Assembly (NCBI RefSeq): GCF_000331105.1
Contig: NC_020054.1
Coordinates: 3,470,478 to 3,534,477, forward strand
Direction of reading: 5' to 3'
Source: Fibrella aestuarina BUZ 2
Lineage (GTDB): Bacteria > Bacteroidota > Bacteroidia > Cytophagales > Spirosomataceae
DNA length: 64,000 bases
Below the pieces are notes generated by a model. That model was given only the letters and a program-made list of their open reading frames with translations, searched no databases and was not told the origin of the DNA. Made by a program: the position numbers and the translations under genes. This document shows, in pieces, positions 6,531-61,397 of this stretch (positions are counted from its first letter, which is position 1; every line of letters starts with the position of its first letter).

Positions 6531-6656
6531 GAATGCACAATGAATAATGGACAATGAATAATGGGCCGTGCGGTGGACCGCTGACGCCAGATTACCGGAG
6601 CGTCAGCGGTCCGCCGCCTGGTTCATTATTCATTGTCCATTATTCATTGTGCATTC
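6531..6656. repeat. Long intergenic inverted repeat LIP-1 (bidirectional terminator-like)
   Basis: The left arm begins at 6531 and the right arm ends at 6656. The outer 33 bases, built from the repeated word CAATGAATAATGG, are perfectly complementary. An inner stem (GCGGTGGACCGCTGACGC against its complement with one mismatch) carries the GCTGACGC apex. The element fills the gap between two convergent genes and ends four bases from the SulP stop codon. Confidence 0.9.
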
Positions 6657-6659
6657 CCA

Positions 6660-8264
6660 TTACTCCCCCGTAATCACTTCCCGGATGGGTTCGTAGCGTG
6701 GGAGTTTGTGTTTGTGTTGCGTGACGTCGCGGAGTTCGTAGTCGATACCCTGCAAGACAGCTTTTTCACGGAAATCGAGCAGAATGTTGTAGATGTCCTG
6801 ATCGATGAAGTTGGCGTTTCGGCCATCGACCAGCACCGAGTCGCCAGTTCGTAGGCCGTGCAGCGTTTCTTTCAACTGCGGTTTGCTCAGAAAATAAAGG
6901 TCTTTCTGGAATTCAATCAGCACCCGGTTGCCCGTGCGGACGACGCGGAACGTGGTCTGGAAATTCGAGTAGAGAATAAAGCCGATGCCGACCACCGTGC
7001 CGAGGGCAATCCCCACCAGCAGATCGGTAAAGACAATGCCGAGTACCGTTACGATAAACGGAATAAACTGGTTAAGCCCGTCGCCCCAGGTTTTGGTGAA
7101 AATCGATGGTTTGGCCAGTTTGTAGCCCACCATAATCAGCAGGGAAGCCAGACAGGCCAGCGGAATATGGTTCAGGATGGAACCCGCCAGAAAAACAGCC
7201 GCGCAGAGCAATACGCCGTGTGTAATGGCGGAGACCCGGGTTTTGGCCCCGCCGAACACGTTGGCCGACGTGCGCACCACCACCGACGTGATCGGTAGGC
7301 CACCAATCAGCCCCGACAGCAGGTTGCCCATGCCCTGCGCCATCAGTTCCTGATCGGGCGACGACGTTCGCTTGTACGGATCGAGCCGGTCGGAAGCTTC
7401 CAGATTCAACAGCGTTTCCAAGCTCGCCACCAGCGCAATCGTCGCGGCGATTTTGTACAGCTGCGGGTTGCTCAGTGCGCTGAAGTCGGGAAAATCGAAG
7501 ATCGAGAAAAAGCTGTCGCCCGCTTTCACCAACGGAATACGCACCATGTGTTCGTTGGAATCGCCCAGGTACCAGTCGGGCATGTACGCCCCAAAGAAGT
7601 AGTTGAGCCCCACGCCAAGGAAAACCACCGCCAGCGCAGCGGGCAGGTTCTGAAAAAACTTGACGCCCCGCCCCGCCGTGCGTTCCCAGGTAATCAGTAG
7701 TACTAGCGAAATCAGGCTGATAACCACAGCGCCGGGGCTGGCCGTGGCGATAGCCCGGTAAATTTCGGACAGCGTATTTTCGCCGTCGGCTAGTTGCTGA
7801 AACTCAAATTCCCCTTCGTAGTCATTGTCGCGACCGAGGGCGTGTGGAATCTGTTTCAGGATGATCACCAGCCCAATCCCCACCAGCATGCCCTTGATCA
7901 CAGCATCGGGAAAGAAGCTGCTGAATCGACCGGCTTTGATCAGCCCCAGCACCAGTTGAATGGCGCCCGCCAGCATGACCGCCACCAGAAACGCTTCGTA
8001 CGAACCTATTTTTAGGATCGAATCGGCTACAATGACAGCCAGACCAGCGGCCGGGCCACTGACGCTCAGTTCGGAGCCCGAAAACAAACCAACCACCATG
8101 CCCCCGATGATTCCCGCCACCAGACCGGCAAACAGCGGCGCGCCAGACGCCAGCGCGATACCGAGGCAGAGGGGCAGAGCCACCAGAAAAACAGCTACGC
8201 CAGCCGGCAGATCGTAGCGAAACCATTGGGGCTTATACGCCGCCAAACTTTTAAACGGATTCAC
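6660..8264 (-). CDS. SulP-family anion transporter with C-terminal STAS domain
   Basis: About 534 residues if it starts at the GTG at 8262-8264 (VNPFKSLAAYKPQWF). The frame stays open upstream to ATGs at 8405 and beyond, but those residues lack family character and the extension would run into the divergent methyltransferase gene. The protein has the SulP core starting YDLPAGVAVFLVALPLCLGI, about ten or more membrane helices, and a cytoplasmic STAS domain at about residues 440-520 (RTGDSVLVDGRNANFIDQDI). SulP proteins move sulfate, bicarbonate or other anions with Na+ or H+. Bacteroidota members of this type are often suspected to be bicarbonate transporters, but no carbonic anhydrase lies nearby to support that. 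Family firm, substrate open. Confidence 0.88.
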   Translation of the reverse strand: MNPFKSLAAYKPQWFRYDLPAGVAVFLVALPLCLGIALASGAPLFAGLVAGIIGGMVVGLFSGSELSVSGPAAGLAVIVADSILKIGSYEAFLVAVMLAGAIQLVLGLIKAGRFSSFFPDAVIKGMLVGIGLVIILKQIPHALGRDNDYEGEFEFQQLADGENTLSEIYRAIATASPGAVVISLISLVLLITWERTAGRGVKFFQNLPAALAVVFLGVGLNYFFGAYMPDWYLGDSNEHMVRIPLVKAGDSFFSIFDFPDFSALSNPQLYKIAATIALVASLETLLNLEASDRLDPYKRTSSPDQELMAQGMGNLLSGLIGGLPITSVVVRTSANVFGGAKTRVSAITHGVLLCAAVFLAGSILNHIPLACLASLLIMVGYKLAKPSIFTKTWGDGLNQFIPFIVTVLGIVFTDLLVGIALGTVVGIGFILYSNFQTTFRVVRTGNRVLIEFQKDLYFLSKPQLKETLHGLRTGDSVLVDGRNANFIDQDIYNILLDFREKAVLQGIDYELRDVTQHKHKLPRYEPIREVITGE

Positions 8265-8414
8265 AGAAACGGAATGGTTATCAATTTGTGTAGAAAAGAG
8301 AGTAGGAACGCCATACCACCGAGTTGACCCGCTTACTGAGGCGACTGGCTGGTATTGGTAAAGGAGAATTAAATCTACATTAAAGATAAGTCGAATTGCC
8401 CGCATAAACATCCT

Positions 8415-9733: not shown

Positions 9734-10405
9734 ATGCGTAACGTACTGATTGGCGCCGGGCTTTTCCTGGCCACCTTACCCGCCCTCGGCCAGACCATTT
9801 ACGCGGGTGACCAGACGATCGACAAGCAAACCTACAAAGGCCTGTTTCTGACCATTCCGATGGCCGACCGGCAGGTAGAGCGCGACTGGGAGGAGCAACT
9901 GAAGCAATATGGCCGCCTCACCACCTCGCGCAGCGTGTACCGCGTGACGACCGCCGACATCCGCGACATTTCGTCGGAGCCGGTCAACCTGACGAGCCAG
10001 CTCAAAGGCAACAAAAAATCGACGACGCTCTTCGTGGCCTTCGATCAGGGTGGCGGTAACTTCATCGCCCCCGGCAACGGCAACTACAGCGCCGCCGAAA
10101 CGCTGCTGAAAAATTTTGCTGACAAAACGATTTTCAACGATGAAGTGCGGGGTGCCGAAGAGTCGTTCAACGAGGCACAGCGGGCGCACCAGAAGCTGGT
10201 GAAACGCGGCGAAAACCTGGTCAGCGACATCGAGTCGAACCGCAAGGAGAAAGAGCGCCTGCTCCGCAAGATCGACGAAAACGCCAAGGAGCTAGAGCAG
10301 TTGCAGAAAGACGTCGAAACCAACAAAACCGATCAGGCCAACGCCCTGACCGAGATGGATAACAAACGCAAAAACGTCGAAGCCGTAAAAGCGAAGAAGC
10401 AATAG
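9734..10405 (+). CDS. Exported coiled-coil protein of unknown function
   Basis: A 223-residue protein with a clear signal peptide (MRNVLIGAGLFLATLPALGQ, cleavage after GQ or before it). A globular part of about 110 residues (GDQTIDKQTYKGLFL, TTLFVAFDQGGGNFI) is followed by a long Lys/Glu-rich coiled coil from about residue 140 to the end (RKEKERLLRKIDENAKELEQ). I do not recognise a domain. It is probably periplasmic or attached to the cell envelope. It lies 113 bp downstream of the methyltransferase and is followed by an inverted repeat, so it may be its own transcription unit. Confidence 0.75.
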   Translation: MRNVLIGAGLFLATLPALGQTIYAGDQTIDKQTYKGLFLTIPMADRQVERDWEEQLKQYGRLTTSRSVYRVTTADIRDISSEPVNLTSQLKGNKKSTTLFVAFDQGGGNFIAPGNGNYSAAETLLKNFADKTIFNDEVRGAEESFNEAQRAHQKLVKRGENLVSDIESNRKEKERLLRKIDENAKELEQLQKDVETNKTDQANALTEMDNKRKNVEAVKAKKQ

Positions 10406-10412: not shown

Positions 10413-10514
10413 CACGGTTTATGTTCACTGGCCTCAGTTCACTGTCTTCTGTTGGCTGATTAGCCAACAAAGGACAGCGAACTGAGGGCAGCGGACAATA
10501 AACAGTAAACCGTG
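10413..10514. repeat. Long intergenic inverted repeat LIP-2
   Basis: Imperfect palindrome whose arms read CACGGTTTA...CTCAGTTC...TGTTGGCT on the left, with the complement on the right, closing on TTGGCTGATTAGCCAA at about 10453-10468. It fills most of the gap between two co-directional genes and belongs with the other long palindromes of this window. Confidence 0.8.
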
Positions 10515-10557: not shown

Positions 10558-10953
10558 ATGCAGTATTCTGAATTCATTCATGCCGCCAAGGCCAAGCTTG
10601 GTGTCGACACCGAGCAAGATGTGCTTGATGTGTCCCGTGCGTTTCTGCACACCCTCACGACTCACCTGGCTGGTAATGCCGCCGACAAACTGGGCGCCCA
10701 ACTGCCGGGCCCGCTGCTCGATATTATCCGCGAAATCCCGCCCGAAGAACGCGATCAGGGCGAGCGTTTTAAACTCACCGAGTTCTACGAACGCGTGGGC
10801 GATCAACTCGGCGTCGATGCCGAAGAAGGCAAGCAAAAGACGCATCAGTTCATGGAATTGCTGGGACAGATGATCACCACCGGCGAGCTGCACAAAATTA
10901 AAGTCACCCTCTCCGACGACTACGCCCCACTGTTTGACGGCATGGTCGTGTAG
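10558..10953 (+). CDS. DUF2267 domain protein
   Basis: A 131-residue cytoplasmic protein that is mostly alpha-helical in character. The pattern of two related halves, each with an E-F-x-x-x-V or L-x-E-F-x-x-R-V element (YSEFIHAAKAKLGVD; LTEFYERVGDQLGVD), and the PGPLLDIIRE segment fit DUF2267, a family with no established function. It has no signal peptide or membrane helix. It lies between two long inverted repeats, upstream of a CoA-transferase gene whose own start falls just after the second repeat. The family match is from memory of its repeats and length, so moderately secure. Confidence 0.75.
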   Translation: MQYSEFIHAAKAKLGVDTEQDVLDVSRAFLHTLTTHLAGNAADKLGAQLPGPLLDIIREIPPEERDQGERFKLTEFYERVGDQLGVDAEEGKQKTHQFMELLGQMITTGELHKIKVTLSDDYAPLFDGMVV

Positions 10954-10956: not shown

Positions 10957-11083
10957 TTTCGAGTTTGACGGTTGAAGTTTGCAGCTTCGGGTTTATAGTT
11001 AGCTAACGCAAGCCGACCATGCGCGAGCCAACTGTAAACTCGAAACTGCAAACTGCAAACTTTAACCCGAAGACGCCAAACGG
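10957..11083. repeat. Long intergenic inverted repeat LIP-3
   Basis: Imperfect palindrome with arms made of GAGTTT/CAGTTT words, closing around AGTTAGCTAACGCAAGC on the left and GCGAGCCAACT on the right (about 10998-11033). It is clearly related in sequence to LIP-4 on the other side of the CoA-transferase gene. A reading frame through its right arm lengthens the CoA-transferase frame artificially. Confidence 0.8.
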
Positions 11084-11093: not shown

Positions 11094-12374
11094 ATGCCCC
11101 TTCCGCTCACGACGCCTGAACAGGCGGTTTCGGCCATCCAATCTGGTAACCGAGTATTCATTCATAGCGTAGCCCAGACGCCCCACGTCCTGATTCGGGC
11201 GATGGTCGCGCAGGCCGACCGGCTCACCGACGTCGAGATCTGCCACATCCATACCGAAGGCCCGCTGCCATACCTGGAGCCCCAGTATCAGACCGCCTTT
11301 CGGCCCAACTCCTTCTTTATCGGGGCCAACATGCGCCGGCAACTGGCGCAGGGCATCGGCGACTACGTACCCATCTTTCTGAGCGAAATTCCGCTGCTGT
11401 TTAGCCGCAACATCCTACCCGTCGATGTGGCGCTGATTCAGGTGTCGCCGCCCGACGCCCACGGCTACTGCTCGCTGGGGCCGTCGGTCGACGTGTCGCT
11501 GGCGGCTATCCGGGCGGCCAAATACGTGATCGCGCAGATCAACCCGCGGGTGCCACGTACCCACGGCGATGGCCTGATTCCCGTATCGATGCTCCACGCC
11601 GCCGTGGAGGTCGACGAACCGATCTACGAAGTAAAACCCGGTGCGATTGACGCCACCGACCGCAAAATTGGGCAGTACGTAGCGAGTCTGGTCGAGGACG
11701 GCGCCACGCTGCAACTGGGCATCGGCGGCATTCCCAACGCCACCCTGGCCGAGCTGATACACCACAAAGGGTTGGGCATTCACACCGAAATGTTTACCGA
11801 CGGCATCATCGACCTGGTGGAGCGGGGCGTCATCACGGGCGAACACAAGACGGTGTTGCCCTATCGCATCGTATCGAGTTTCGTGATGGGCAGTCAGCGC
11901 GTGTATGACTTCATCGACGACAACCCCGCCGTGGCCATGAAACAGGCGAGCTACACCAACGACACGGCCATCATCCGCCGCAACCCGAAGGTGACGGCCA
12001 TCAACAGTGCCATCGAAATCGACCTCACGGGGCAGGTCTGCGCCGATACCATCGGGACGATGCAGTATTCGGGTGTGGGCGGCCAAATGGATTTTGTACG
12101 GGGCGCCTCGCTGTCGGAAGGAGGCAAGCCCATCATTGCCCTGCCGTCAGTCACGAGCAAAGGCCTGAGCAAGATTGTACCGTTTCTGAAAGAAGGGGCC
12201 GGCGTAACCACCACCCGCGCCCACGTCCACTACATCGTGACCGAATATGGCATTGCCAACCTCTACGGCCAAAACCTGCGCCAACGGGCCCGCGCCCTCA
12301 TCAACATCGCCCACCCCGACCACCGCGAAGCTCTGGAACGGGAAGCCCACGCCCGATTCGGGCCGTTGGGTTGA
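11094..12374 (+). CDS. Acetyl-CoA hydrolase/transferase family protein (4-hydroxybutyrate/acetate CoA-transferase-like)
   Basis: A 426-residue class I CoA-transferase of the Cat1/AbfT type, which moves CoA between acyl-CoA and acetate or a related acid through a glutamyl-CoA intermediate. Diagnostic stretches are LGIGGIPNATLAELI, the catalytic-Glu motif GIHTEMFTDGIIDL, and the C-terminal HYIVTEYGIANLYG. I start it at the ATG at 11094 (MPLPLTTPEQAV). The frame continues 25 codons upstream to 11019, but those codons lie in an inverted repeat and read as its repeated words. Function would fit the acetate/propionate theme of the left end, though it is not in that operon. Specificity cannot be read from the sequence. 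Confidence 0.88.
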   Translation: MPLPLTTPEQAVSAIQSGNRVFIHSVAQTPHVLIRAMVAQADRLTDVEICHIHTEGPLPYLEPQYQTAFRPNSFFIGANMRRQLAQGIGDYVPIFLSEIPLLFSRNILPVDVALIQVSPPDAHGYCSLGPSVDVSLAAIRAAKYVIAQINPRVPRTHGDGLIPVSMLHAAVEVDEPIYEVKPGAIDATDRKIGQYVASLVEDGATLQLGIGGIPNATLAELIHHKGLGIHTEMFTDGIIDLVERGVITGEHKTVLPYRIVSSFVMGSQRVYDFIDDNPAVAMKQASYTNDTAIIRRNPKVTAINSAIEIDLTGQVCADTIGTMQYSGVGGQMDFVRGASLSEGGKPIIALPSVTSKGLSKIVPFLKEGAGVTTTRAHVHYIVTEYGIANLYGQNLRQRARALINIAHPDHREALEREAHARFGPLG

Positions 12375-12378
12375 GGTT

Positions 12379-12490
12379 GGCGTTTCGGGTTTTATGTTTC
12401 GAGTTTTGGGCTTCGAGTTTACAGTTAGCTAACGCGAGCTAATCATGTATCAGTTAACTGTAGACTCGAAACTCCAAACTGAAAACGCCA
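12379..12490. repeat. Long intergenic inverted repeat LIP-4
   Basis: Imperfect palindrome just after the CoA-transferase stop. The arms carry GGCGTTT, CGAGTTTACAGTTAGCT and their complements around the core TTAGCTAACGCGAGC (about 12424-12438). The right half repeats much of LIP-3, including ACTCGAAACT.CAAACT, so the two flank the gene as related copies. Confidence 0.8.
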
Positions 12491-12543
12491 AACGATAAAC
12501 TCTATTGACAATCAAAGCACTTTACTGCACTTTTCAAGGAATT

Positions 12544-32025: not shown

Positions 32026-32463
32026 ATGAACATCCGGCAAATCCTTCAGCGTAAATCCATTAACACCATTTATTCGGTCGCGCCCGGCGAAACCGTCTAT
32101 GAAGCTCTGCAACTCATGGCCGCCAAAAACATTGGTGCCGTTCTGGTGCTGGACGGCGGCGATTTGGTGGGTATTTTCTCGGAGCGCGACTACGCCCGGA
32201 AAGGTATTCTACAGGGGCGGGCCTCGAAAGACACGCTCATCCGCGACGTGATGACAAGCAGCCTCATCACCATTGCCCCCGAACAGCTACTGGAGTCGGC
32301 CATGCTGACGATGTCGGAAAAGCACATCCGCCACCTGCCGGTGCTGGAAGGGGAACGACTGATCGGCATTATCTCGATCAACGACGTGGTGAACGCCATC
32401 ATCCACGATCAGAAAGCCCGCATCAGCTCGCTCGAAAGCTATATTTCAGGCAGTTCGTATTAG
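32026..32463 (+). CDS. CBS-domain protein
   Basis: A 145-residue protein made almost entirely of two CBS motifs (residues about 12-65, YSVAPGETVYEALQLMAAKN...LVGIFSERDYARK; and 75-130, SSLITIAPEQLLESAMLTMS...LIGIISINDVVNA). Such stand-alone pairs form a Bateman module that binds AMP, ATP or SAM and regulates a partner. The ATG at 32026 is chosen because the family starts there (MNIRQILQRKSINTIYSV). The open frame runs 62 codons further upstream through a low-complexity intergenic stretch. Followed at once by an inverted repeat. Confidence 0.88.
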   Translation: MNIRQILQRKSINTIYSVAPGETVYEALQLMAAKNIGAVLVLDGGDLVGIFSERDYARKGILQGRASKDTLIRDVMTSSLITIAPEQLLESAMLTMSEKHIRHLPVLEGERLIGIISINDVVNAIIHDQKARISSLESYISGSSY

Positions 32464-32540
32464 TGGTAAGCGGTGAGTGATAACGAGTGGGTGACCAACA
32501 ACTTAGGCTCTCACCGTTTACCACTCACCACTTACCACTA
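32461..32540. repeat. Intergenic inverted repeat LIP-8
   Basis: Begins at the CBS stop codon. TAGTGGTAAGCGGTGAGTGA on the left pairs with TCACCGTTTACCACTCACCA and CTTACCACTA on the right with a few mismatches and gaps. The right arm overlaps the TATCTTTG promoter element of the NUDIX gene, so hairpin and promoter are physically coupled. Confidence 0.7.
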
Positions 32541-33111: not shown

Positions 33112-33996
33112 ATGATCGTTATGCCCACTTTATCACCAACGGTTTCGGTTCGCCCAGATGCACTCACAGCCGGGCAGGCCGAAAAGTCGATTCTATGCCT
33201 CGACCTGGCCCCTCAACGGCTCCGGCTGACGCTACTCGACCCCCAGCGGCGGATGGTGTGGCTCGATGAATACGCACAACCCACCCTGCTGACCGAAGAG
33301 TCGTTGCTGACCCAATTGCCGACCCTGTTTGGCGACCACCCGCTGTTGCACTACGATCAGTTTCAGCAGATCCGGGTGGCGGTCAACGCCTCGGCGTTTA
33401 CGCTCATTCCGAACGAGTTATACCGGAAAGAATACGCCAGCAACTACCTGACGCTCATGCGCGGGCATCAGCCGCCGCCCAACGAAATCGCGTCGGCCTA
33501 CGAGCATAACGAGGGGTTCACGGTGGTGTTCGGTCTCGACCGCGCCATTACGGAGTTTGTGGGCGGGCAATACCCGTTGCAGCCCATCACCTACGTGCAT
33601 CAGGCCAGTACGCTCATCCGGGCTACGCAGCCCATCGACAAACAGGAGCCCGAGACGCAGAACCTGTTTCTGCATTTTGAGGAAGAATTTGCGTTTGTGC
33701 TTTTCCGCGAGGAGCGCAAACTGCGCTACTGCAATCGGTTTGGCTACAAAAACGTGCAGGACCTGGTCTACTACGTGCTCTATGTAGCCGACGAACTGGG
33801 TGTCGACCCCGATACGCTCAATGTGCTGGCCTACGGCGAGATCACCCCCTTTGCCGAAGCCTACATTGCGCTGTCGCGTTTCCTGCCTAACCTGCACATT
33901 GGCTCGCCGCCCAGCGGCCTTAACCCCGCCCCCGACCTCGCCGACCTGCCCGAACATCGCTACCTCGACTTGCAGGGCCTGTGCTTGCTAAGCTAG
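33112..33996 (+). CDS. DUF3822 family protein
   Basis: A 294-residue protein of a Bacteroidota-specific family. Recognisable stretches are KSILCLDLAPQRLRLTLLDP near the start, VNASAFTLIPNELYRKEYAS, and NLFLHFEEEFAFVLFREERK. The layout suggests an actin-like ATPase (ASKHA) fold similar to type IV pilus PilM proteins, but phosphate-binding motifs are not evident. In many Bacteroidota DUF3822 precedes rsmD and coaD. Here coaD follows after 95 bp with no rsmD between. Function unknown. Confidence 0.82.
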   Translation: MIVMPTLSPTVSVRPDALTAGQAEKSILCLDLAPQRLRLTLLDPQRRMVWLDEYAQPTLLTEESLLTQLPTLFGDHPLLHYDQFQQIRVAVNASAFTLIPNELYRKEYASNYLTLMRGHQPPPNEIASAYEHNEGFTVVFGLDRAITEFVGGQYPLQPITYVHQASTLIRATQPIDKQEPETQNLFLHFEEEFAFVLFREERKLRYCNRFGYKNVQDLVYYVLYVADELGVDPDTLNVLAYGEITPFAEAYIALSRFLPNLHIGSPPSGLNPAPDLADLPEHRYLDLQGLCLLS

Positions 33997-34085
33997 TTTA
34001 CCGCTTGTTGTTTGAGAGTTGACGTTTCCTCGTCGTGCAACGTGAACTGAAACAACGTCAACCCTTAACCAATAACCGCCAAACC
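33995..34085. repeat. Degenerate intergenic inverted repeat LIP-9
   Basis: TTTACCGCTTGTTGTTTGAG AGTTGACGTTT on the left and AACGTCAACCCTTAACCAAT AACCGCCAAA on the right are partly complementary. The arms are again short AAC/GTT words. It fills the gap between DUF3822 and coaD; pairing is weaker than in the other copies. Confidence 0.5.
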
Positions 34086-34091: not shown

Positions 34092-34550
34092 ATGTCCCGT
34101 ATTGCACTTTTCCCCGGCTCGTTCGATCCCTTTACTAAAGGGCACGAAGATATCGTTCGCCGGGGGTTGCATCTCTTCGATGAAATTATTGTCGGTATTG
34201 GCCGGAACGCCAGCAAACAACGCTACTTCCCGCTTGAACAAATGATCGGCTGGATCGAGCAGACGTTTCAGGATGCCCCTCAGGTACGTGTCGTGGCCTA
34301 CGATGACCTGACGGCCAACGTCGCCCGCCAGTTGGGAGCTCGTTTTCTGCTGCGGGGCTTGCGCAACACCACCGATTTTGAGTACGAAAACGGGATTTCG
34401 CAGGTAAACCGCTTCGTGTATGAAGAAGTCGAAACGGTATTCCTGATCACCTCGCCGCATCTGGCGCCCATCAGTAGCAGCATCATCCGCGACCTGCACC
34501 GCTACGGCCAACCCGTCGATTCGTTTTTACCCTACAAGCTTAAAGAGTGA
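34092..34550 (+). CDS. coaD: Phosphopantetheine adenylyltransferase
   Basis: A 152-residue enzyme of coenzyme A synthesis that makes dephospho-CoA from 4'-phosphopantetheine and ATP. It has the nucleotidyltransferase N-terminus IALFPGSFDPFTKGHEDIVR (T/HxGH motif TKGH), the NVARQLGARFLLRGLRNTTD FEYE substrate-binding region and the C-terminal ISSSIIRDL motif. Length is normal. The start is the ATG at 34092 (MSRIALFP); an upstream in-frame start at 34035 lies in an inverted repeat and is not convincing. The terminator stem downstream overlaps its last codons. Confidence 0.95.
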   Translation: MSRIALFPGSFDPFTKGHEDIVRRGLHLFDEIIVGIGRNASKQRYFPLEQMIGWIEQTFQDAPQVRVVAYDDLTANVARQLGARFLLRGLRNTTDFEYENGISQVNRFVYEEVETVFLITSPHLAPISSSIIRDLHRYGQPVDSFLPYKLKE

Positions 34551-34594
34551 AAGACTGGCGCAAGCCATATGGGTGCGCCAGTCTTTCACTCTTT
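34542..34594. terminator. Bidirectional terminator overlapping the coaD stop
   Basis: A perfect 21-bp stem: AAAGAGTGAAAGACTGGCGC A at 34542-34562 and its complement at 34574-34594, with an 11-base loop. The stem starts inside the last two codons and the stop codon of coaD and lies between convergent genes. Confidence 0.85.
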
Positions 34595-34601
34595 ATCGCT
34601 T

Positions 34602-38595: not shown

Positions 38596-38705
38596 AATTG
38601 TGCTGGCAGAGGGCCAATACATTGTGCGTTTCAAGAAAACAAATCTCAAGTCTATAAAACAAGTATTAGTGTGTTCAATTTTCACAGCGGTACTTGATGT
38701 AATCT

Positions 38706-40634
38706 ATGTCAATTATGGTGAGCATGAAATGGATATTATTGTTTTATTTATTGATCAATATTTTTGCCTTGCGTCAGGCCATATGCCAGGAAAGTAGTAA
38801 CCTAACATTTGACTGGATACAAGGTAAGGACAGTTCTAGCGTAGGTGTAAACTACCATGATAAGATGAATTTATTTTCTTCAACAGATAGCTTATATATA
38901 ATATATTATCTAAACAAAAGATTTACGAAAGAGCCAAGCGCATTTGAAAAGAAATGTGTTTTTCGGGATAATAAGTGGTATGCTAATATAGTCGTTCCTA
39001 ACGATGCAGTAAGCTTGATGTTAATAGTAAAAAACGAAAACAATAAATTAGATAATAACAAGGGCACAGGTTACTGGTTACCCGTAACTCATGACGGTGT
39101 TGTTTCAGAGGGTGCTTACGCAACTATTGCCTATATGTATGCTGGCGCTTGGGAGGCACCAAATTACAACTTATCAACTCAGCGAGATAGCGCTCGAATT
39201 CTATTTGAACAGGAGTTTACATTGTATCCACAGAGCAAGCGTTTTTACCATAGATATTATTTGTCTACTCTAAGTAAAAGTGGTGAAAAATATAAATCGG
39301 AACTTAGTATGTTTGAAAGTTATAATGATTTGGATCAATGGGAGCTATTAATGCTAACGGATTTGTATAAATATAAAAATAACGTCGAAAAAACTAGATT
39401 TTTTAATGATAGGTTGTTTAAAACATATCCTGGTGGATTTTGGTCTATGCAAATAAATTCGATGCCATTGCAAAAGGCTTTTTCTGGAACCGACGATATG
39501 GTAAAGAAGCGAAAGGCATATGAAGAATTTAAGGAAAAATACAAGACGTTTGAAGATGATGATACAAGGCGATACATTGAACTAAGAAAAGGAATTACTA
39601 TGCTCAGCAGACTATTGCCTCATTTTGTAGAGTATGATCTGGAGAAGGAATGGCTGGCAGATGTCAATGAATTGAGTGATGAATTCAAAATTCCAACATT
39701 AGCCTTTGGTGCTCGCTCATTGAATAGCAATGGCAATGGCCTTGTTGCTGAAAAGTATGCAAAAATGGCTGTTGAACTTATGAAAATGTATTTAGATACA
39801 AATGTAAGAAAGGTGACAGAAAGGTTATATTACACAGATAAGGAAGTGCGAAATATACGCGAGAGCCTACTGGCTGACTACTTATACATATATGGCCATA
39901 GTCTTTTCTTGCAAAAAAAGTATGAACAGGCCGATACAGTGTTGCAGCAAGCAGCTTTAAAATACGCCAAATCAACAGATATTACGAAGAATAAACTTTA
40001 TCTCAGATGTCTAATCGAAGCAAAGCAATATAAGAAAGCGCAGTCTGTGATGCGCGGTTTTATGAAACGGGGCAAAGTAGACAAAGAAATGGATGAGCTA
40101 ATGATAAACTTGCCAATAGCCGACGGTGATAAATATGATGCGGAAGAGGCGGTGAAATACGTGATCCGAGATAAAATAAGAGCGAACATTATTAGAGAAA
40201 ATATACCTGACATGGTATTTAGAAACTCGCTAGGGGAGAAAGTGTCATTGAGTAGTTATAAGGGAAAGATAGTTATTTTAGATTTTTGGGCTTCCTGGTG
40301 CGCTCCCTGTATTGCTGGTCTCGGGGTGCTTGACAAGTTTAGGGCAGACAATAAACTGGATGACAAGGTTGTAATAGTCTGCGTGAATACGTTGGAATAC
40401 GATCTCAAAGGGCGAAATAGAGCAAACGAGATTATGGCTAGTCGTAATTACTCTCTTGTTAGTTTATTCGACGAGCTGAATGAAGCGCCTAAACAAGCCA
40501 GATTCACAGCCTTGCCTACCCGCGTCTTTATTGATCAGTCTGGCCAGGTCCGTTATAGGCAGACGGGTATCGAGGGAAGTGAGACCGAACAGTTAGCCGA
40601 ACTGGCTGTCATCGTAGGCGAGATCAGGAAATAA
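38706..40634 (+). CDS. Large exported TlpA-family thiol-disulfide oxidoreductase
   Basis: A 642-residue protein (636 from the ATG at 38724, MKWILLFYLLINIFALRQAI, a signal peptide ending near CQE). The first 490 residues are a helical, TPR-like region without a named domain (QADTVLQQAALKYAKSTDIT; AKQYKKAQSVMRGFMKRGKV). The C-terminal 140 residues are a TlpA/thioredoxin domain: VSLSSYKGKIVILDFWASWC APC with the CxxC redox pair, then the cis-Pro region ARFTALPTRVFIDQSGQVRY. It should reduce or shuffle disulfides in the periplasm. Codon and base use are AT-rich, unlike every neighbour, which suggests horizontal transfer. A GG-leader-like peptide precedes it. Confidence 0.85.
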   Translation: MSIMVSMKWILLFYLLINIFALRQAICQESSNLTFDWIQGKDSSSVGVNYHDKMNLFSSTDSLYIIYYLNKRFTKEPSAFEKKCVFRDNKWYANIVVPNDAVSLMLIVKNENNKLDNNKGTGYWLPVTHDGVVSEGAYATIAYMYAGAWEAPNYNLSTQRDSARILFEQEFTLYPQSKRFYHRYYLSTLSKSGEKYKSELSMFESYNDLDQWELLMLTDLYKYKNNVEKTRFFNDRLFKTYPGGFWSMQINSMPLQKAFSGTDDMVKKRKAYEEFKEKYKTFEDDDTRRYIELRKGITMLSRLLPHFVEYDLEKEWLADVNELSDEFKIPTLAFGARSLNSNGNGLVAEKYAKMAVELMKMYLDTNVRKVTERLYYTDKEVRNIRESLLADYLYIYGHSLFLQKKYEQADTVLQQAALKYAKSTDITKNKLYLRCLIEAKQYKKAQSVMRGFMKRGKVDKEMDELMINLPIADGDKYDAEEAVKYVIRDKIRANIIRENIPDMVFRNSLGEKVSLSSYKGKIVILDFWASWCAPCIAGLGVLDKFRADNKLDDKVVIVCVNTLEYDLKGRNRANEIMASRNYSLVSLFDELNEAPKQARFTALPTRVFIDQSGQVRYRQTGIEGSETEQLAELAVIVGEIRK

Positions 40635-41840: not shown

Positions 41841-44108
41841 GTGCTCTACTTCACAAACAGCAAACTAACCCATTTGGTGAAATTTTTACCGTTTTTGAGT
41901 TTCCTGCTGATCGCCCTGCCCGCGTTTTCCCAGAAAAAGAACGAGGCGTATCAGTATCACATCAAACGAACGAACACCCCTGTCGTACTGGATGCCTCGC
42001 TCGACGATGCCGCCTGGCAAGATGCCCAACTGGCGTCTAACTTCTGGATGGTGTTGCCGATGGACACCAGCCGCAGCCGGTTACGTACCGATGTGCGGAT
42101 GACCTACGACGCCCAGCATATCTACCTGAGCGCCATTTGTTACTACGACAGTTCGCTGATTGCCCGCAATGCCCCGCCTTACATCGTGGAGTCGATGCGG
42201 CGAGACTGGACGTTTGGCCGAAACGACAATTTTCTTTGTTTCATTGATCCGTTTGATGACCAGACTAATGGCTTTGCATTTGGTACGAACACGGTGGGGG
42301 CGCAGTGGGACGGCCTCATGTACGAAGGGGGCAAAGTCAACCTGAGCTGGGACAACAAGTGGGCGTCGGTGACACGTAGCTACCCCGATCGGTACGTGAT
42401 TGAGATGGCCATTCCGTTCAAAACCATCCGCTACAAGCAGGGCATCAGTCGGTGGGGTATCAATTTTAGCCGGAATGATCTGAACTCCACCGAAAAATCG
42501 GCCTGGGCACCCGTTCCGCTTCAGTTCCCGACGGCTTCGCTGGCCTACACGGGCGTGCTCGTCTGGGATCAGCCGCCGCCATCGCCCGGCCCCAATATCT
42601 CGGTCATTCCCTACGCGCTGAGTAGCCTTAATGCCAATTACCAGGGTAACGTACCTACGGAAGCCAAATTCAATGCGGGGCTCGATGCGAAAGTGGCCGT
42701 TACGTCGTCGCTGAACCTTGACCTGACCGTCAACCCCGATTTTTCGCAGGTCGACGTCGATCAGCAAGTGACCAATCTCGACCGGTTCGAGCTGTTTTTT
42801 CCCGAACGGCGGCAGTTTTTCCTCGAGAACGGCGATCAGTTTACCAATTTCGGTTACGCCACCATTCGCCCCTTTTTCAGTCGCCGAATCGGGTTGGGCG
42901 GTGTGCCGATCCGGTTTGGGGCGCGGCTCAGCGGAAAAATCAACAAAGACTGGCGCTTCGGCCTGATGGATATGCAAACGGGGGCCGTGCCTAATTCGGG
43001 ACCGGCGGGGGAGACGCTGCCCGCCCAGAATTTTGCCGTCATGGCCCTGCAACGCCGCGTCTTTTCCCGGTCCAACATCGGCGTGCTGTTTGTGAATAAA
43101 CAGTCGATGAATTACAATCCGGTCGGCGACAGGCCGCTCTATTCGGTCTACAACCGAAACCTGGGGTTTGAATACAACCTGGCCTCGACCAATAACCTCT
43201 GGACCGGGAAATTGATGTACGTGAAGTCGTTCAGTCCGGGGGTGGTGGGGCAGGACGCCGTGTATGCGGGTAATCTGCAATACAGCAGCCGAAACTGGCT
43301 CCTCAACGGCCAATGGGAAACCGTTGGGCCCAACTACACAGCCGAGGCTGGGTACGTGCCGCGCCGGGGCTACAGCCGGGCCACGGGCATTGCCAACTAT
43401 TCGTTTTTCCCGACGGGCACGCGCATTCTGTCGCACGGGCCGCAACTGTCTGGCTTCTACGTGGTTGACCCCGCCGGGCGGCGCAGCGACTACGAAGGCG
43501 TGCTGGGGTACCAATTCGTGTTCCGGTCACGAAGCGCGTTTTTGGTCTGGGCGGCGTCTGATTACGTGCGGCTGTTACAACCGTTTGATCCAACCAACAC
43601 GGGCCGTGAACCCTTGAGCACCGGCTCTACGCACCGTTGGCAGGCATGGGGTACGACCTTTATCTCCAAGCCGCAGCAGCTATTTACCTATGGGTTTTCG
43701 ACCCGTTACGGGGGCTATTACGCCGACGGAACCCGGCTGAATGTGACGGCTGATCTGGGCTACCGGTTTCAGCCGTACGTGAGCCTGGCGGTCAACGCTA
43801 ACTACAACGACATTCGCCTGCCCGCGCCCTGGAACAATACCAAGTTCTGGCTCGTCGGTCCGCGCTTCGACCTGACGATGACCAACACGCTCTACCTGAC
43901 GACGTTTATTCAGTACAATGAGCAGCAACGCAACATGAACGTGAACGCCCGGATTCAATGGCGCTACAAACCGGCTTCCGACCTGTTTATCGTCTATACC
44001 GACAACTACCTGCCCACCACCGGCCTGCCCAACATGGACAACGTAGGGCCATTTCTCGTAAAAAACCGGGCCGTCGTTCTGAAATGGACGTACTGGTGGA
44101 ATCTGTAA
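41841..44108 (+). CDS. CBM9-like / DUF5916-type outer-membrane protein
   Basis: A 755-residue exported protein. The frame opens with GTG at 41841. A second GTG at 41877 (VKFLPFLSFLLIALPAFSQ) would begin exactly with the signal peptide and may be the true start. Residues about 45-240 are a CBM9-like beta-sandwich (VVLDASLDDAAWQDAQLASN; YVIEMAIPFKTIRYKQGISR WGINFSRN). The remaining 500 residues are beta-strand rich (DLTVNPDFSQVDVDQQVTNL; ERRQFFLENGDQFTNFGY) and fit DUF5916, a predicted outer-membrane barrel. The last strand is NRAVVLKWTYWWNL, with terminal aromatics. Role unknown. Located between menE and menB but unlikely to act in that pathway. Confidence 0.83.
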   Translation: MLYFTNSKLTHLVKFLPFLSFLLIALPAFSQKKNEAYQYHIKRTNTPVVLDASLDDAAWQDAQLASNFWMVLPMDTSRSRLRTDVRMTYDAQHIYLSAICYYDSSLIARNAPPYIVESMRRDWTFGRNDNFLCFIDPFDDQTNGFAFGTNTVGAQWDGLMYEGGKVNLSWDNKWASVTRSYPDRYVIEMAIPFKTIRYKQGISRWGINFSRNDLNSTEKSAWAPVPLQFPTASLAYTGVLVWDQPPPSPGPNISVIPYALSSLNANYQGNVPTEAKFNAGLDAKVAVTSSLNLDLTVNPDFSQVDVDQQVTNLDRFELFFPERRQFFLENGDQFTNFGYATIRPFFSRRIGLGGVPIRFGARLSGKINKDWRFGLMDMQTGAVPNSGPAGETLPAQNFAVMALQRRVFSRSNIGVLFVNKQSMNYNPVGDRPLYSVYNRNLGFEYNLASTNNLWTGKLMYVKSFSPGVVGQDAVYAGNLQYSSRNWLLNGQWETVGPNYTAEAGYVPRRGYSRATGIANYSFFPTGTRILSHGPQLSGFYVVDPAGRRSDYEGVLGYQFVFRSRSAFLVWAASDYVRLLQPFDPTNTGREPLSTGSTHRWQAWGTTFISKPQQLFTYGFSTRYGGYYADGTRLNVTADLGYRFQPYVSLAVNANYNDIRLPAPWNNTKFWLVGPRFDLTMTNTLYLTTFIQYNEQQRNMNVNARIQWRYKPASDLFIVYTDNYLPTTGLPNMDNVGPFLVKNRAVVLKWTYWWNL

Positions 44109-44110: not shown

Positions 44111-44212
44111 TGAGTTTTTGAGTTTTCAGTTTGGTAGTTTTCAGTTGGCTGACGCCTGAACGAGCTTGCGTCAGCCAACTGAAAACTACCAAACTGAAAA
44201 CTCAAAAACTCA
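44111..44212. repeat. Long intergenic inverted repeat LIP-5 (perfect 45-bp arms)
   Basis: Left arm 44111-44155 and right arm 44168-44212 are perfectly complementary over 45 bases, with a 12-base loop (CTGAACGAGCTT). The arms are made of GAGTTTTCAGTTTGG-like words and close with TTGGCTGACGC / GCGTCAGCCAA. The element starts two bases after the upstream stop codon. Confidence 0.95.
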
Positions 44213-44247: not shown

Positions 44248-44703
44248 ATGGAAGAGGCCAAAATCGTCAATCCGATCTCGCCTGACAAGGTGACCGATCG
44301 TCCGGGTTTGCTGGAGTACGCACACACAGCGGGCGGGGCGGTCATCAGGCCGGAAGACAAAGGCAAAATCACGGGTCGGGCTGTAACGGCCATGCGCGAA
44401 CAAACCGACCTGCAAATCGCGCAGCTGTACAAGCAGATGCAGTTACTGGCCGAACAGGCCACGGCCATTCGCCATCGGGTCGAGGTATCGGAGCGCATTT
44501 ACAGCGCACATATGAGCTTTGAGCCGATTGTTGGCCAGACGTATTATTTCTACCTTCGCAAAAACGGCACCGATGTGTTGTCGATGGTGGCACCGCACGA
44601 ATGGGGCCGCAAATTCCCGTTTGAGCGCTGTGTTGCCACCGTCCGTATGCTGGCCGACCACACCTGGGACGTTACCTACCACGAAACACCAATGAGTGAA
44701 TGA
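44248..44703 (+). CDS. DUF2452 family protein
   Basis: A 151-residue cytoplasmic protein of a family seen in Bacteroidota and some proteobacteria. Typical stretches are GLLEYAHTAGGAVIRPEDKG, a helical LQIAQLYKQMQLLAEQATAI and MSFEPIVGQTYYFYLRKNGT DVLSMVAPHEWG. No catalytic motif can be seen. It lies between two inverted repeats, upstream of menB on the same strand. Function unknown. Confidence 0.82.
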   Translation: MEEAKIVNPISPDKVTDRPGLLEYAHTAGGAVIRPEDKGKITGRAVTAMREQTDLQIAQLYKQMQLLAEQATAIRHRVEVSERIYSAHMSFEPIVGQTYYFYLRKNGTDVLSMVAPHEWGRKFPFERCVATVRMLADHTWDVTYHETPMSE

Positions 44704-44774
44704 GCAAACGAGTGAACAGGTGAAGCAAAGGATTAGCTAGTCACTCGTTCGCTCGCTTGCTGGTTCGCTCATTC
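44698..44774. repeat. Degenerate intergenic inverted repeat LIP-6
   Basis: GAATGAGCAAACGAGTGAAC on the left is partly complementary to GTTCGCTCGCTTGCTGGTTC GCTCATTC on the right, closing around GGATTAGCTAGTCACTC. The arms are built of GAGCGAAC words. The left end overlaps the stop codon of the DUF2452 gene. Confidence 0.6.
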
Positions 44775-44780: not shown

Positions 44781-45602
44781 ATGAGCACCTATAACTGGAC
44801 ATCGATTCGCGAGTACCGCGAGATCAAGTTTGAGTACTTCGAGGGGATCGCCAAGATCACCATCAACCGACCCCACAAACGCAACGCCTTTACGCCCCTG
44901 ACTGTCAAGGAGATGTCGGAAGCCATGGAGCTGGCCCGGCAGGACGAGCGCGTTGGCGTCGTGATCCTCACCGGCGAGGGACCCGATGCCTTCTGTAGCG
45001 GCGGCGATCAGTCGGTGCGGGGCCACGGCGGCTACATCGGCGAAGATGCCGTGCCTCGGCTCAACGTACTGGATCTGCAGATGCAGATCCGGCGTATCCC
45101 CAAGCCGGTCATCGCCATGGTGGCGGGCTACGCTATCGGCGGCGGCCACGTATTGCACGTAGTCTGCGACATCAGTATCGCGGCGGATAACGCCCGTTTC
45201 GGGCAGACTGGCCCTAAAGTCGGGTCCTTCGACGGGGGCTTCGGTGCCTCGTACCTGGCGCGGGTAGTGGGTCAGAAGAAGGCTCGCGAAATCTGGTTTT
45301 TGTGCGATCAGTACAACGCGCAGGAAGCATTGGACATGGGACTGGTCAACAAGGTGGTTCCCCTGGAACAGCTCGAAGACGAGACCATCGCCTGGTGCCG
45401 GAAGATCCTGGAAAAGAGCCCCATCGCTCTGCGGATGCTGAAGGCCTCATTTAACGCCGAACTCGACGGGCAGGCCGGTATTCAGCAACTGGCGGGTGAT
45501 GCCACCTTGTTGTATTACCTGTCGGAAGAAGCCAAAGAAGGCAAGAACGCCTTTCTCGAAAAGCGCAAACCCGACTTCAGCCAGTTCCCTAAATTCCCAT
45601 GA
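44781..45602 (+). CDS. menB: 1,4-dihydroxy-2-naphthoyl-CoA synthase
   Basis: A 273-residue crotonase-fold enzyme that closes the second ring of menaquinone from OSB-CoA. The start is the ATG at 44781 ([20 protein letters not shown]); eight extra upstream codons lie in a repeat arm. Motifs are [40 protein letters not shown], the oxyanion-hole and active-site region [20 protein letters not shown] and the C-terminal [16 protein letters not shown] that is typical of MenB and inserts in the neighbouring subunit. It is near-certainly the functional partner of the MenE-like ligase 3 kb upstream. Confidence 0.95.
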
Positions 45603-45608: not shown

Positions 45609-45700
45609 GTTCAAGGTTCAATGGCTAAGGTTCAACGTTGGCTGACGGATGAGCAATTGTGCGTCAGCCAACGTTGAACCTTAGCCATTGAACCTTGAAC
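45609..45700. repeat. Long intergenic inverted repeat LIP-7 (perfect 39-bp arms)
   Basis: Left arm 45609-45647, right arm 45662-45700, perfectly complementary, loop 14 bases. The arms are made of GGTTCAATGG / AAGGTTCAAC words and end in TTGGCTGACG / CGTCAGCCAA at the apex, the same closing sequence as LIP-5. It occupies nearly the whole gap between menB and the deacetylase gene. Confidence 0.95.
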
Positions 45701-59598: not shown

Positions 59599-59685
59599 CG
59601 GCTTCAACCAACAACCAATCGGCCTGGTTGGTTGACACTCAGAAAAACACCCACACGTACGTTCTAAAGCGACTATTCACGTTCT

Positions 59686-61254
59686 ATGCAATCATCCTCA
59701 GATGTGCCTGCGCCAGCCGCTGACTCCACAGTTATCAGCTTAATGCAGGCCGCCTTAGACCAGTCAGCTAGCGGTATCATTGTCTGCGAAGCCGTACGGG
59801 ACAACCGGAGAGGAATCCAAGCGGCTCGTGTGGTGCTGGTGAACCGGCGGGCCGAGCAATACCTGGGCCTGTCCCGTAGCGAATTGATTGGACAGACCGG
59901 TGACAGCATTTTAGTGACGGCTACCAGCAGTGATCTGTGGCCCAACGTCTACAAGGCCATCGAGACGGGGGAGCCGAACCGCTACGACGTGTTTCTGAGT
60001 ATTCGGCGGAGTGAGGTAGCCGCCTGGTTTGATATGTGCATCGAGCCGGTGGGCGACGGCGAACGTGTGGTGGTTTCGCTGGCCGACATTACTGAGATAC
60101 GGAATGCCAAACAGGCTCTGATGGGTGAGTCGATCCTGTTCAAAGCGCTTTCGTCGACGGTGCCTGAGATGGGGGTTATCGTCACCGATTATTTCAAGAA
60201 AATTCTAACCGCCAGCGGCCTGCTGCCCGATCTGCTCTCAAATACCAATCCCGATGAGCTGGTAGGGGGGCTGCTGGAAAACTTTGTGTTGCCCGAATTT
60301 CGGCAAGACTGGCGCAATTACCTCGGTACGGCCCTTCGCGGCGAGGCGCACTTTTTCTCCGACCACTGGGCGGGTTGGCGCAGTGAAGTATATGTGGGGC
60401 CCGTCTATAATGACGTGGGCGCGGTGGTCATGATTCTGGTTGTGTTCCGCAACGTCACCGAGCAGTACCGGCAGCAACAGGCCCTCATTCAGAGCAACAT
60501 GGCCCTGGAACAGTCGAACCGGAGCCTCGAACAGTTTGCCTACGTGGCCTCCCACGATTTGCAGGAGCCATTGCGGAAAATCAAATCCTTTGGTGACTTG
60601 CTCCGTACGAATTACGGCGACGCCATCGGCGAAGAAGGTATCGGTCTCATTCAGCGGATGCAGTCGGCTTCGGAGCGGATGAGCACCCTGATTCAGTCGC
60701 TGTTGGCCTACGCGCGGCTCAGTTCCGAGCAGCGATCGCCCAGCGTGGTGCATCTGGAAGACCTGTTCAACGAGCTCATCAGCGACCTGAGTGTAGCTAT
60801 TCAGGAACGAAACGGCGTGGTTCGTCTGAAACCACCCCTGCCTATTATCCCCGGCGACGAGCAGCAGCTACGGCAGCTGTTTCAGAACCTGTTGACCAAC
60901 GCCCTGAAGTTTGTGCCCTCCGACCGAACGCCCATCATCACGATTGGGGCGCGGGTGGTTGAAGGCCCCAAAGTGCCTCATGTGGCGGCCGCGGCCGATG
61001 CCATCTACGCCGAAGTCGATATTCAGGACAACGGCATCGGAATCGATAAGGAGAACTACGACAAGATTTTCGGACTCTTCAACCGGTTGCACGGCCGCAA
61101 GCAGTATGAAGGATCGGGCATTGGGCTGGCGACGACCAAAAAAGTGGTCGAAAACCACAAAGGCGCGATCACCATCGACAGTCAGCTCGACAAAGGCACC
61201 ACGTTTCACGTATACCTGCCTATGAAAGGCGAAGGCGATACGATAGAGGCATAA
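59686..61254 (+). CDS. Cytoplasmic PAS-domain sensor histidine kinase
   Basis: A 522-residue kinase without a membrane helix. Two PAS-like domains: residues about 18-140 (ALDQSASGIIVCEAV...QYLGLSRSELIGQTGDSILV...VVVSLADITEIRNAKQAL) and 145-265 (VPEMGVIVTDYFKKILTASG...VILVVFRNVTEQYRQQQ, with FRNVTEQ as the PAS end). A coiled linker leads to HisKA with the phospho-acceptor H290 in ASHDLQEPLRKIKSFGDLL, then HATPase_c (FQNLLTNALKFV, DNGIGIDKENYDKIFGLFNR LHG, GSGIGLATTKKVVENHKG). The layout is that of phytochrome-like orphan kinases of Bacteroidota. No response regulator adjoins. Signal unknown. Confidence 0.92.
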   Translation: MQSSSDVPAPAADSTVISLMQAALDQSASGIIVCEAVRDNRRGIQAARVVLVNRRAEQYLGLSRSELIGQTGDSILVTATSSDLWPNVYKAIETGEPNRYDVFLSIRRSEVAAWFDMCIEPVGDGERVVVSLADITEIRNAKQALMGESILFKALSSTVPEMGVIVTDYFKKILTASGLLPDLLSNTNPDELVGGLLENFVLPEFRQDWRNYLGTALRGEAHFFSDHWAGWRSEVYVGPVYNDVGAVVMILVVFRNVTEQYRQQQALIQSNMALEQSNRSLEQFAYVASHDLQEPLRKIKSFGDLLRTNYGDAIGEEGIGLIQRMQSASERMSTLIQSLLAYARLSSEQRSPSVVHLEDLFNELISDLSVAIQERNGVVRLKPPLPIIPGDEQQLRQLFQNLLTNALKFVPSDRTPIITIGARVVEGPKVPHVAAAADAIYAEVDIQDNGIGIDKENYDKIFGLFNRLHGRKQYEGSGIGLATTKKVVENHKGAITIDSQLDKGTTFHVYLPMKGEGDTIEA

Positions 61255-61275
61255 GGCTGAGCGGTTGTAAGTGGG

Positions 61276-61397
61276 TAAGTCTGGAACGTCGTACAGAAAA
61301 AGTCCGGCGTCTGGATAGTCCGTTTGGGTGATGCTTACGCAAAGTCAACACCCAAACGGACTATCCAGACTCCGGACTTTTTCCTGTATGACTTATC
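61276..61397. repeat. Long intergenic inverted repeat LIP-11
   Basis: The inner arms GTCTGGATAGTCCGTTTGGG TG (61309-61330) and their complement (61348-61369) are perfect over 22 bases. The outer part extends pairing through GTACAGAAAAAGTCCGG / CCGGACTTTTTCCTGTATGA C with small gaps. It lies between convergent kinase and sodB genes and probably ends both transcripts. Confidence 0.85.

What the first reader, a model, noticed from the sequence alone, without database searches (positions are those of the whole stretch)
6531..61397. A family of long, locus-specific intergenic palindromes with a shared apex
At least ten gaps (6531-6656, 10413-10514, 10957-11083, 12379-12490, 32461-32540, 33995-34085, 44111-44212, 44698-44774, 45609-45700, 61276-61397) are filled by inverted repeats. 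Arms reach 45 and 39 bp perfect complementarity, far more than a terminator needs. Arm sequences differ completely between loci, yet each arm is a string of short repeated words (for example AATGAATAATGG; GAGTTTTCAGTTTGG; GGTTCAATGG). Several close on the same apex TTGGCTGACGC or TTAGCTAACGC. Conserved apex, conserved symmetry and free arm sequence suggest a mechanism that rewrites one arm from the other, or a structural role read from RNA or cruciform DNA. Seen directly: the symmetry and shared apex. Inferred: a common origin and any function.
Basis: partly seen in the sequence, partly recalled or inferred. Interest (0 to 1): 0.8.

Follow-up and report, generated by a model that had tools for sequence, protein, structure and literature searches.

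The report
Self-mirroring hairpins after stop codons
In this bacterium and its relatives, many gaps just behind genes are filled by long near-perfect DNA palindromes that tend to keep their place and symmetry while their letters change, apparently because one half is sometimes recopied from the other during DNA replication.

Summary
All ten gaps fold better than shuffles. A 1.26-Mb sample has 51.6 palindromes of score >=25 per Mb; shuffled gaps and 150 kb of E. coli have none. They start a few bases after stop codons, often fill convergent gaps and are rare in divergent ones. Arms are strings of 7-base words, G-rich on the gene side. The apex GGCTGACGC marks a subset: 35 exact copies here, any in 9 of 98 relatives. 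Orthologous gaps often keep a palindrome with other arms (13 of 18 comparisons). Between close species loops are inverted at four loci and arms change symmetrically, transversions included: the footprint of template switching between arms. I read them as 3'-end hairpins, mostly without U-tract, whose symmetry template switching helps to restore. Against pure rewriting: polarised changes are mostly one-sided. REP/RAYT is not supported: no Y1 transposase here. RNA function was not testable.

The parts
6530..6657 (.). palindrome between convergent genes (5525-6523 + and 6660-8264 -); AATGAAT words, apex CGCTGACGC
   Evidence: 58-nt arms, 91%; z -17.7; gene ends
10422..10497 (+). imperfect palindrome after gene 9734-10405 +; apex GTTGGCT/AGCCAAC
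   Evidence: 36 nt, 83%; z -11.0
10965..11065 (+). imperfect palindrome after gene 10558-10953 +; apex TTAGCTAACGC on the 5' side
   Evidence: 46 nt, 78%; z -6.0
12377..12491 (+). imperfect palindrome after gene 11202-12374 +; apex TTAGCTAACGC on the 5' side
   Evidence: outer arms 28 nt, 79%; z -6.3
32461..32540 (+). imperfect palindrome at the end of gene 32026-32463 +; AGTGGTAAGCGGTGAGTG words, no shared apex
   Evidence: 38 nt, 76%; z -8.0
33996..34084 (+). weak imperfect palindrome after gene 33253-33996 +
   Evidence: 31 nt, 77%; z -3.5
34541..34595 (.).
   Evidence: no palindrome >=18 in the orthologous gap of G002, G003 and G004
44111..44212 (+). 45-bp perfect palindrome just after gene 41841-44108 + (DUF5916); apex TTGGCTGACGC
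   Evidence: z -17.7; orthologous gaps in G002 and G004 hold different palindromes; Pfam
44698..44774 (+). imperfect palindrome between the DUF2452 gene (44248-44703) and the enoyl-CoA-hydratase family (menB-like) gene 44781-45602; GAGTGAA words; the site followed across Spirosoma
   Evidence: z -8.0
45609..45700 (+). 39-bp perfect palindrome after the menB-like gene; GGTTCAA words, apex TTGGCTGACG
   Evidence: z -17.5; other palindromes in the same gap of G001, G002, G003 and G004, that of G002 with a similar word type
61296..61383 (.). palindrome between convergent genes (59830-61254 + and 61408-62103 -); no shared apex
   Evidence: 38 nt, 95%; z -13.2

Best explanation
These are gene-end hairpins. 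Most lie right behind a stop codon and would form a long stem at the 3' end of the messenger RNA, or of both messengers where two genes converge. The likeliest role is a 3'-end barrier: stopping RNA polymerase read-through and/or protecting the RNA end. Selection keeps a hairpin at many of these sites but cares little for its letters. Symmetry is restored in part because a replicating strand sometimes switches template between the two arms, copying one arm onto the other and sometimes flipping the loop. Slippage by 7 bases makes the repeated words. Shown: position, symmetry, 7-base period, transcription-oriented G skew, turnover at orthologous sites, loop inversions, symmetric transversions. 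Inferred: the RNA role, template switching as the cause, slippage as the source of words, and selection or homogenisation as the reason for the common apex.
For: Arms start a median of 6 nt (codirectional, n=50) and 5 nt (convergent, both sides, n=78) from the stop codon at score >=20; palindromes >=18 in 47 of 146 convergent, 62 of 581 codirectional and 4 of 133 divergent gaps. Outer 5' arm G>C in 45 of 62 codirectional arms >=18 in this genome (13 C>G, 4 ties, p 3e-5) and in 23 of 29 in the Fibrella kin (4 C>G, 2 ties). Best repeat lag is 7 in 29 of 65 arms, 6.5 in shuffles. Loops inverted at four loci: 11343 and 87233, 25736 of G231 (listed as 39298 of G230) and 52639; 0 to 5 of 5000 shuffled loops reach the inverted identity, and 4 of 1876 windows in 92 gaps without palindrome look inverted. 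Symmetric WC-to-WC changes in 31 of 1081 arm pairs; both sides changed in 54 of 1081 true pairs against 149 of 6476 slid pairs. Mismatches hardly favour G.U over A.C in codirectional palindromes of this genome (108 v 101). Template switching is known to homogenise arms and invert spacers (PMC8604942, abstract and passages) and to make and mend RNA hairpins (PMC8794818, abstract and opening).
Against: Changes between G227 and G246 polarised by G240 (12 loci): paired to G.U 8, to A.C 3, to other mismatches 7, unpaired to paired 6, G.U to paired 1, unpaired to another mismatch 4, symmetric double 1; 16 pairs unpolarised. This looks stepwise and leans to RNA selection. Pooled over four sets G.U slightly exceeds A.C (215 v 172, p 0.03). 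Arm sites differ at 12.8%, not less than the sequence outside (840 of 8327). Nine of 29 gaps with a palindrome in one close species have none at threshold in the other, and 5 of 18 far comparisons have none. One site changes wholesale at 88-91% flank identity (G042 8774), which arm copying alone does not give. At one site the palindrome is 99% identical between L208 and L210 while the flanking genes are 86-88% alike, and unlike in L212, the nearer relative. T run of four or more at the 3' end in only 7 of 60 palindromes >=25. No expression data; no direct test of template switching.
Confidence: 0.6

Rival explanations
1. Ordinary selection on an RNA hairpin (terminator or 3' stabiliser) is enough: mutations in one arm are compensated one by one, as in Bacillus cereus terminators, and no arm copying is needed.
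For: 3'-end position; one-sided changes and restorations dominate polarised changes, with G.U 8 v A.C 3; compensatory evolution of terminators with G.U as commonest intermediate is published (PMC5381666, abstract only).
Against: Loop inversions at four loci need strand exchange, not compensation; symmetric changes are mostly transversions, which do not pass through G.U; G.U and A.C are nearly equal in this genome; arms of 45-54 perfect pairs exceed need.
Confidence: 0.22
2. They are dispersed mobile palindromes (REP- or MITE-like) that insert behind genes and replace one another; the common apex is the mobile core.
For: Similar palindromes lie at many loci in each genome; apex loops share a consensus near AAGAGTACTCTT in G004 and G002 (0.549 v 0.319 and 0.427 v 0.324 shuffled; 20 listed loops each of 63 and 50); wholesale difference at one site.
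Against: No Y1 transposase match in this genome nor in G230 and G231, though palindromes occur in all three; no naked apex, 14 of 14 exact apex stems in the sample have outer arms of 10 or more; a core inserted into a random site would not have mirror-image flanks. Other transposase families were not searched.
Confidence: 0.12
3. DNA-level function: cruciforms or protein sites at gene ends that absorb supercoils between converging transcription units.
For: Convergent-gap bias (47 of 146 against 62 of 581 codirectional); long perfect arms.
Against: Also present in codirectional, operon-like gaps (DUF2452-menB gap); a transcription-oriented G skew is not expected of a strand-symmetric DNA element; loops of 10-16 nt hinder cruciform extrusion (recalled).
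Confidence: 0.06

Closest known systems
Intrinsic (Rho-independent) terminators, including bidirectional ones
   Same: stem-loop a few bases after the stop codon, common between convergent genes
   Different: arms of up to 54 bp, loop median 12 nt at score >=25, U-tract in only 7 of 60 of score >=25; arms often made of 7-base words
Quasipalindrome / inverted-repeat template switching (PMC8604942, PMC8794818, PMC3820800)
   Same: arm homogenisation, symmetric changes, inversion of the spacer; PMC8604942 says that in bacteria it favoured transversions (passage)
   Different: described there for single events in yeast genes or in RNA genes; here a genome-wide class at gene ends in one family
REP / BIME elements and RAYT transposases (PMC3733652, abstract and section 6)
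   Same: extragenic palindromes behind genes, many copies, convergent and codirectional gaps
   Different: no unpaired GTAG/CGTC tag beside a short fixed stem; arms vary by locus; no Y1 transposase match in this genome
Heptamer direct repeats: TAACTGA repeats (PMC4679880, abstract and section 10) and cyanobacterial STRR (recalled)
   Same: intergenic arrays of 7-base words in some Bacteroidetes and Cyanobacteria; indels in 7-nt steps reported for two Cyanothece strains
   Different: those are direct repeats, in the main genome studied mostly before start codons; here two mirrored arrays behind stop codons

Membership tests
Intrinsic terminator | stem-loop just downstream of the coding end | tested here: met
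   median 6 nt and 5 nt from the stop at score >=20
Intrinsic terminator | run of U directly after the stem | tested here: not met
   T run >=4 in 4 of 32 codirectional and 3 of 28 convergent palindromes >=25
Intrinsic terminator | RNA 3' ends at the site | not testable with these tools
   no transcript data held
REP/RAYT system | RAYT (Y1 transposase) gene in the genome | tested here: not met
   PF01797: 0 in G000; 10 of 13 genomes searched have a match, G000, G230 and G231 do not
REP/RAYT system | short conserved stem with an unpaired GTAG or CGTC tag outside it | tested here: not met
   CGTC lies inside the paired apex next to a 10-16-nt loop; published CGTC REPs have 8-9-bp stems and 4-5-nt loops (PMC3733652 section 6)
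Template-switching inverted repeats | inversion of the spacer between arms | tested here: met
   four loci, chosen because they looked inverted, 17 of 22 palindromes clearly keep the same orientation
Template-switching inverted repeats | symmetric changes in both arms beyond chance | tested here: met
   54 of 1081 true pairs v 149 of 6476 slid pairs changed on both sides
Template-switching inverted repeats | symmetric changes arise in one step | tested here: inconclusive
   one polarised symmetric change against about 30 one-sided ones, 16 pairs unpolarised
Heptamer repeats | 7-base period | tested here: met
   identity at lags 7/14/21 0.389/0.383/0.346 v about 0.27 in other gaps; weaker in the Spirosoma sets (7 of 24 and 7 of 22 arms with best lag 7)
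DNA-uptake sequence (inverted pairs as terminators) | motif also abundant singly across the genome | tested here: not met
   24 of 60 GGCTGACGC lie outside palindromes, 17.3 expected by composition

The most novel reading that the evidence does not exclude
A family-wide gene-end element whose identity is its symmetry, not its sequence: position and mirror form are inherited for long times while transcription-coupled template switching and 7-base slippage keep rewriting the letters, with an apex core perhaps marking where the switch happens.
Probability: 0.25. Interest if true: 0.8.

Novelty: new variant of a known kind. Interest (0 to 1): 0.62.

Why it matters
It would give a natural, genome-wide record of template switching in bacteria, with enough sites to measure rates, loop flips and transcription effects. 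It would also show how a 3'-end structure can be conserved while its sequence is free. The main texts of two surveys of inverted repeats do not contain the word Spirosoma (PMC13155455; PMC4060949; I saw passages only), and the first capped spacers at 8 bp, which leaves out loops of 10-16 nt. The source of 7-base words in Bacteroidetes and Cyanobacteria becomes testable here.

Tried and rejected
REP/RAYT: no Y1 transposase match in this genome; presence of Y1 genes does not track the palindromes in the 13 genomes searched. DNA-uptake motif: single copies near background. Rfam: only a tRNA in the window at the gathering threshold. Backup stop codons: stop triplets in the sense arm are modestly enriched (103 v 87.5, sd 6.9, codirectional; 96 v 75 and 93 v 73 on the two sides of convergent ones), not enough to explain the arms. 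Source copy for the 99% identical palindrome of L208/L210: in the nine genomes searched only the orthologous site of those two matches at 99-100%; listed others reach at most 83% over comparable length (capped list). Paper searches for a description of these elements listed none among the 10-20 papers shown each; most subscription papers are not held. E. coli as a G.U/A.C control was too thin (5 v 0).

Caveats on method: genes were called by my own script, so stops and starts are approximate; palindromes were found without gaps in the arms, so indel-bearing ones are missed; one search's list of 128 includes four runs of masked N, dropped from then on; one search counts three-species comparisons that share loci and, like, does not orient G.U and A.C by strand; some symmetric changes come from loci where only one of the two species has the palindrome; the pooled 215 v 172 counts at least one locus twice; the menB sequence of L205 was misread (frame broken), so its menB values are not used; five comparisons looked inverted by more than 0.1, of which I discount two menB comparisons of low identity; the group 'Spirosomaceae menB loci' was put together by me from menB identity and record titles and holds a record labelled Flavobacterium sp.

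On checking, one count was mended: one search's tally of 10 of 99 includes this genome, so it is 9 of 98 relatives.
Full report
WHERE. The window is G000:C2:3470478-3534477 of a 6.94 Mb genome in two contigs. I think it is Fibrella aestuarina; that is an inference from size and recall, and only the name's taxonomy was looked up.

OBSERVATION. Nine of the ten gaps are in the inverted-repeat list, the tenth is an imperfect hairpin, and each of the ten folds better than all of its 200 shuffles. I then sampled the genome with 60 stretches of 20 kb plus the window (1.26 Mb of 6.94 Mb). Palindromes of score >=25 number 65, or 51.6 per Mb; the longest has 54 perfect pairs. In 629 gaps (110 kb) there are 148, 98 and 58 palindromes at scores 14, 18 and 25, against means of 0.3, 0 and 0 in ten dinucleotide shuffles. 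E. coli K-12 has none >=18 in 150 kb. Density >=25 per Mb: Fibrella kin 97.1, Spirosoma 60.0, Spirosomaceae menB loci 58.4, other Bacteroidota menB loci 8.6 (5 in 49 loci).

POSITION. Palindromes >=18 lie in 47 of 146 convergent, 62 of 581 codirectional and 4 of 133 divergent gaps; in convergent gaps of 100-200 bp it is 17 of 25. They begin a median of 5-6 nt from a stop codon at score >=20, and in 23 of 28 convergent cases >=25 they cover at least 79% of the gap. Few have a U-tract (7 of 60 at >=25), and loops have a median of 12 nt at >=25.

ARMS. Identity at lags 7, 14 and 21 is 0.389, 0.383 and 0.346 in 65 arms against about 0.27 in 469 gaps without palindromes. Lag 7 is best in 29 of 65 arms here and 20 of 35 in the Fibrella kin, but only in 7 of 24 and 7 of 22 in the two Spirosoma sets. 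Seen along the gene, the outer 5' arm is G-rich and C-poor (45 G>C, 13 C>G, 4 ties, p 3e-5); the left arm in convergent gaps is too (30 G>C, 10 C>G, 7 ties), so by mirror symmetry both genes of a convergent pair see it. In the Spirosomaceae menB set the same trend is not significant (15 v 6 codirectional). This ties the element to transcription.

APEX. GGCTGACGC palindromes: 35 exact in this genome, 50 in G002, 63 in G004, 1 in G003, 0 in G001, 35 in G059, 2 to 9 in five others; 9 of 98 relatives in all. All 14 exact apex stems of the sample have outer arms of 10 or more. The loops of apex palindromes resemble each other more than shuffles, clearly in G004 (0.549 v 0.319), less here (0.375 v 0.331) (all 35 loops here, the 20 listed ones each of G004 and G002). 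So the apex core has a common origin or is homogenised, but it is not needed for a palindrome.

ORTHOLOGOUS GAPS, FAR RELATIVES. At six palindromes of score >=18 here I could compare 18 relative gaps in the genus: 13 hold a palindrome or long hairpin and 5 do not (window 45602: 4 of 4; 44108: 2 of 2; 35582: 1 of 3; 34550: 0 of 3; L017 2810: 4 of 4; L017 18637: 2 of 2, judged by folding). The arms are mostly unrelated in sequence, though G002 at 45602 keeps a similar word type, while the flanking genes are 73-94% alike as proteins or 75-87% as DNA. The reverse also occurs: G002 has a score-51 palindrome at 36412 where this genome has none. In the DUF2452-menB gap about 22 of 30 Spirosoma species, judged by eye, have a strong hairpin of GAGTGAA- or GAATGA-type words; the rest have a weak one or none.

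ORTHOLOGOUS GAPS, CLOSE RELATIVES. I compared syntenic stretches of Spirosoma. Loops are inverted at four loci: G227 v G240 at 11343 and G227 v G246 at 87233, G231 v G230 at 25736 and 52639. The inverted reading fits at 0.88, 0.76, 0.95 and 0.92 against 0.54, 0.41, 0.79 and 0.64, with 0, 5, 0 and 0 of 5000 shuffled loops as good; the control gives 4 of 1876 windows. The four were chosen because they looked inverted and their windows were cut by hand, with some inner arm bases; 17 of 22 palindromes clearly keep their orientation. Arm pairs changed on both sides are twice as common as in slid registers (54 of 1081 v 149 of 6476), and symmetric changes are 21 transversions to 10 transitions, and 12 to 9 in three independent species pairs. 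Example: two symmetric transversions and no other change among the paired bases at G042 21247. Arm sites differ at 12.8%, loops at 126 of 500 and the sequence outside at 840 of 8327.

RESULTS AGAINST. With G240 as outgroup, 12 loci give 8 changes from paired to G.U, 3 to A.C, 7 to other mismatches, 6 from unpaired to paired, 1 from G.U to paired, 4 between mismatches, one symmetric change, and 16 pairs that could not be polarised. G.U slightly exceeds A.C when four sets are pooled (215 v 172). Both speak for some RNA-level selection and against arm copying as the only force. Nine of 29 gaps with a palindrome in either close species lack one at the threshold in the other. A wholesale difference (G042 8774) and the L208/L210/L212 conflict ask for replacement or recombination as well; one search found no paralogous source in its list.

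MECHANISM. Arm copying and loop inversion together are what polymerase template switching between inverted repeats does (PMC8604942, abstract and passages; a passage says that in bacteria it favoured transversions). It can create and maintain RNA hairpins (PMC8794818, abstract and opening), and in yeast it is promoted by transcription through RNA:DNA hybrids (PMC3820800, abstract). The G-rich sense strand here would favour such hybrids; that link is my inference. Selection for a 3'-end hairpin then explains where palindromes persist. Step-by-step compensation with G.U intermediates, as published for Bacillus terminators (PMC5381666, abstract), probably runs beside it.

KNOWN OR NEW. Each ingredient is known. 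The combination - a dense class of long gene-end palindromes with 7-base-word arms, a lineage-specific apex and loop flipping - was not among the papers listed. Heptamer repeats are known as direct repeats in five Bacteroidetes (PMC4679880, abstract and section 10). I call it a new variant of a known kind.

Noticed in passing
window 38500-40500: AT-rich island (GC 0.35-0.41 in a 0.57 window) with a 642-aa ORF at 38706-40634 that ends in a redoxin/thioredoxin-like domain; the gap between the genes on either side of it is 81 bp in G002 and about 1.1 kb in G003. Looks like an insertion.
   Followed up: partly
L208, L210, L212 (DUF2452-menB gap): Palindrome and about 20-40 bp around it 99% identical between two species whose flanking genes are 86-88% alike, but different in the nearer sister species; could be short-tract recombination or strong constraint.
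   Followed up: partly
L205 and L207: Palindrome arms nearly identical, loop different, flanking DUF2452 gene 88% alike.
   Followed up: partly
own-genome sample, e.g. L006 14997, L027 14224, L009 2392, L030 5151: Two further palindrome classes without the apex: GTCATT-word arms (like cyanobacterial heptamers, recalled) and TTTTGTCATCCC...GGGATGACAAAA arms.
   Followed up: no
window 37460-37510, L051 15138, L059 19927: Dispersed palindromes with the words AAACCTATAAGGT.
   Followed up: no
G227:C1 near 3371343 (L324, 11343 of the joined stretch): A long palindrome in a divergent gap, where they are rare; present in three Spirosoma species and with an inverted loop in one.
   Followed up: yes
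own-genome sample: Stop triplets are modestly enriched in the sense arms; a 7-base word shifts frame each time, so repeated words can offer stops in all frames.
   Followed up: partly
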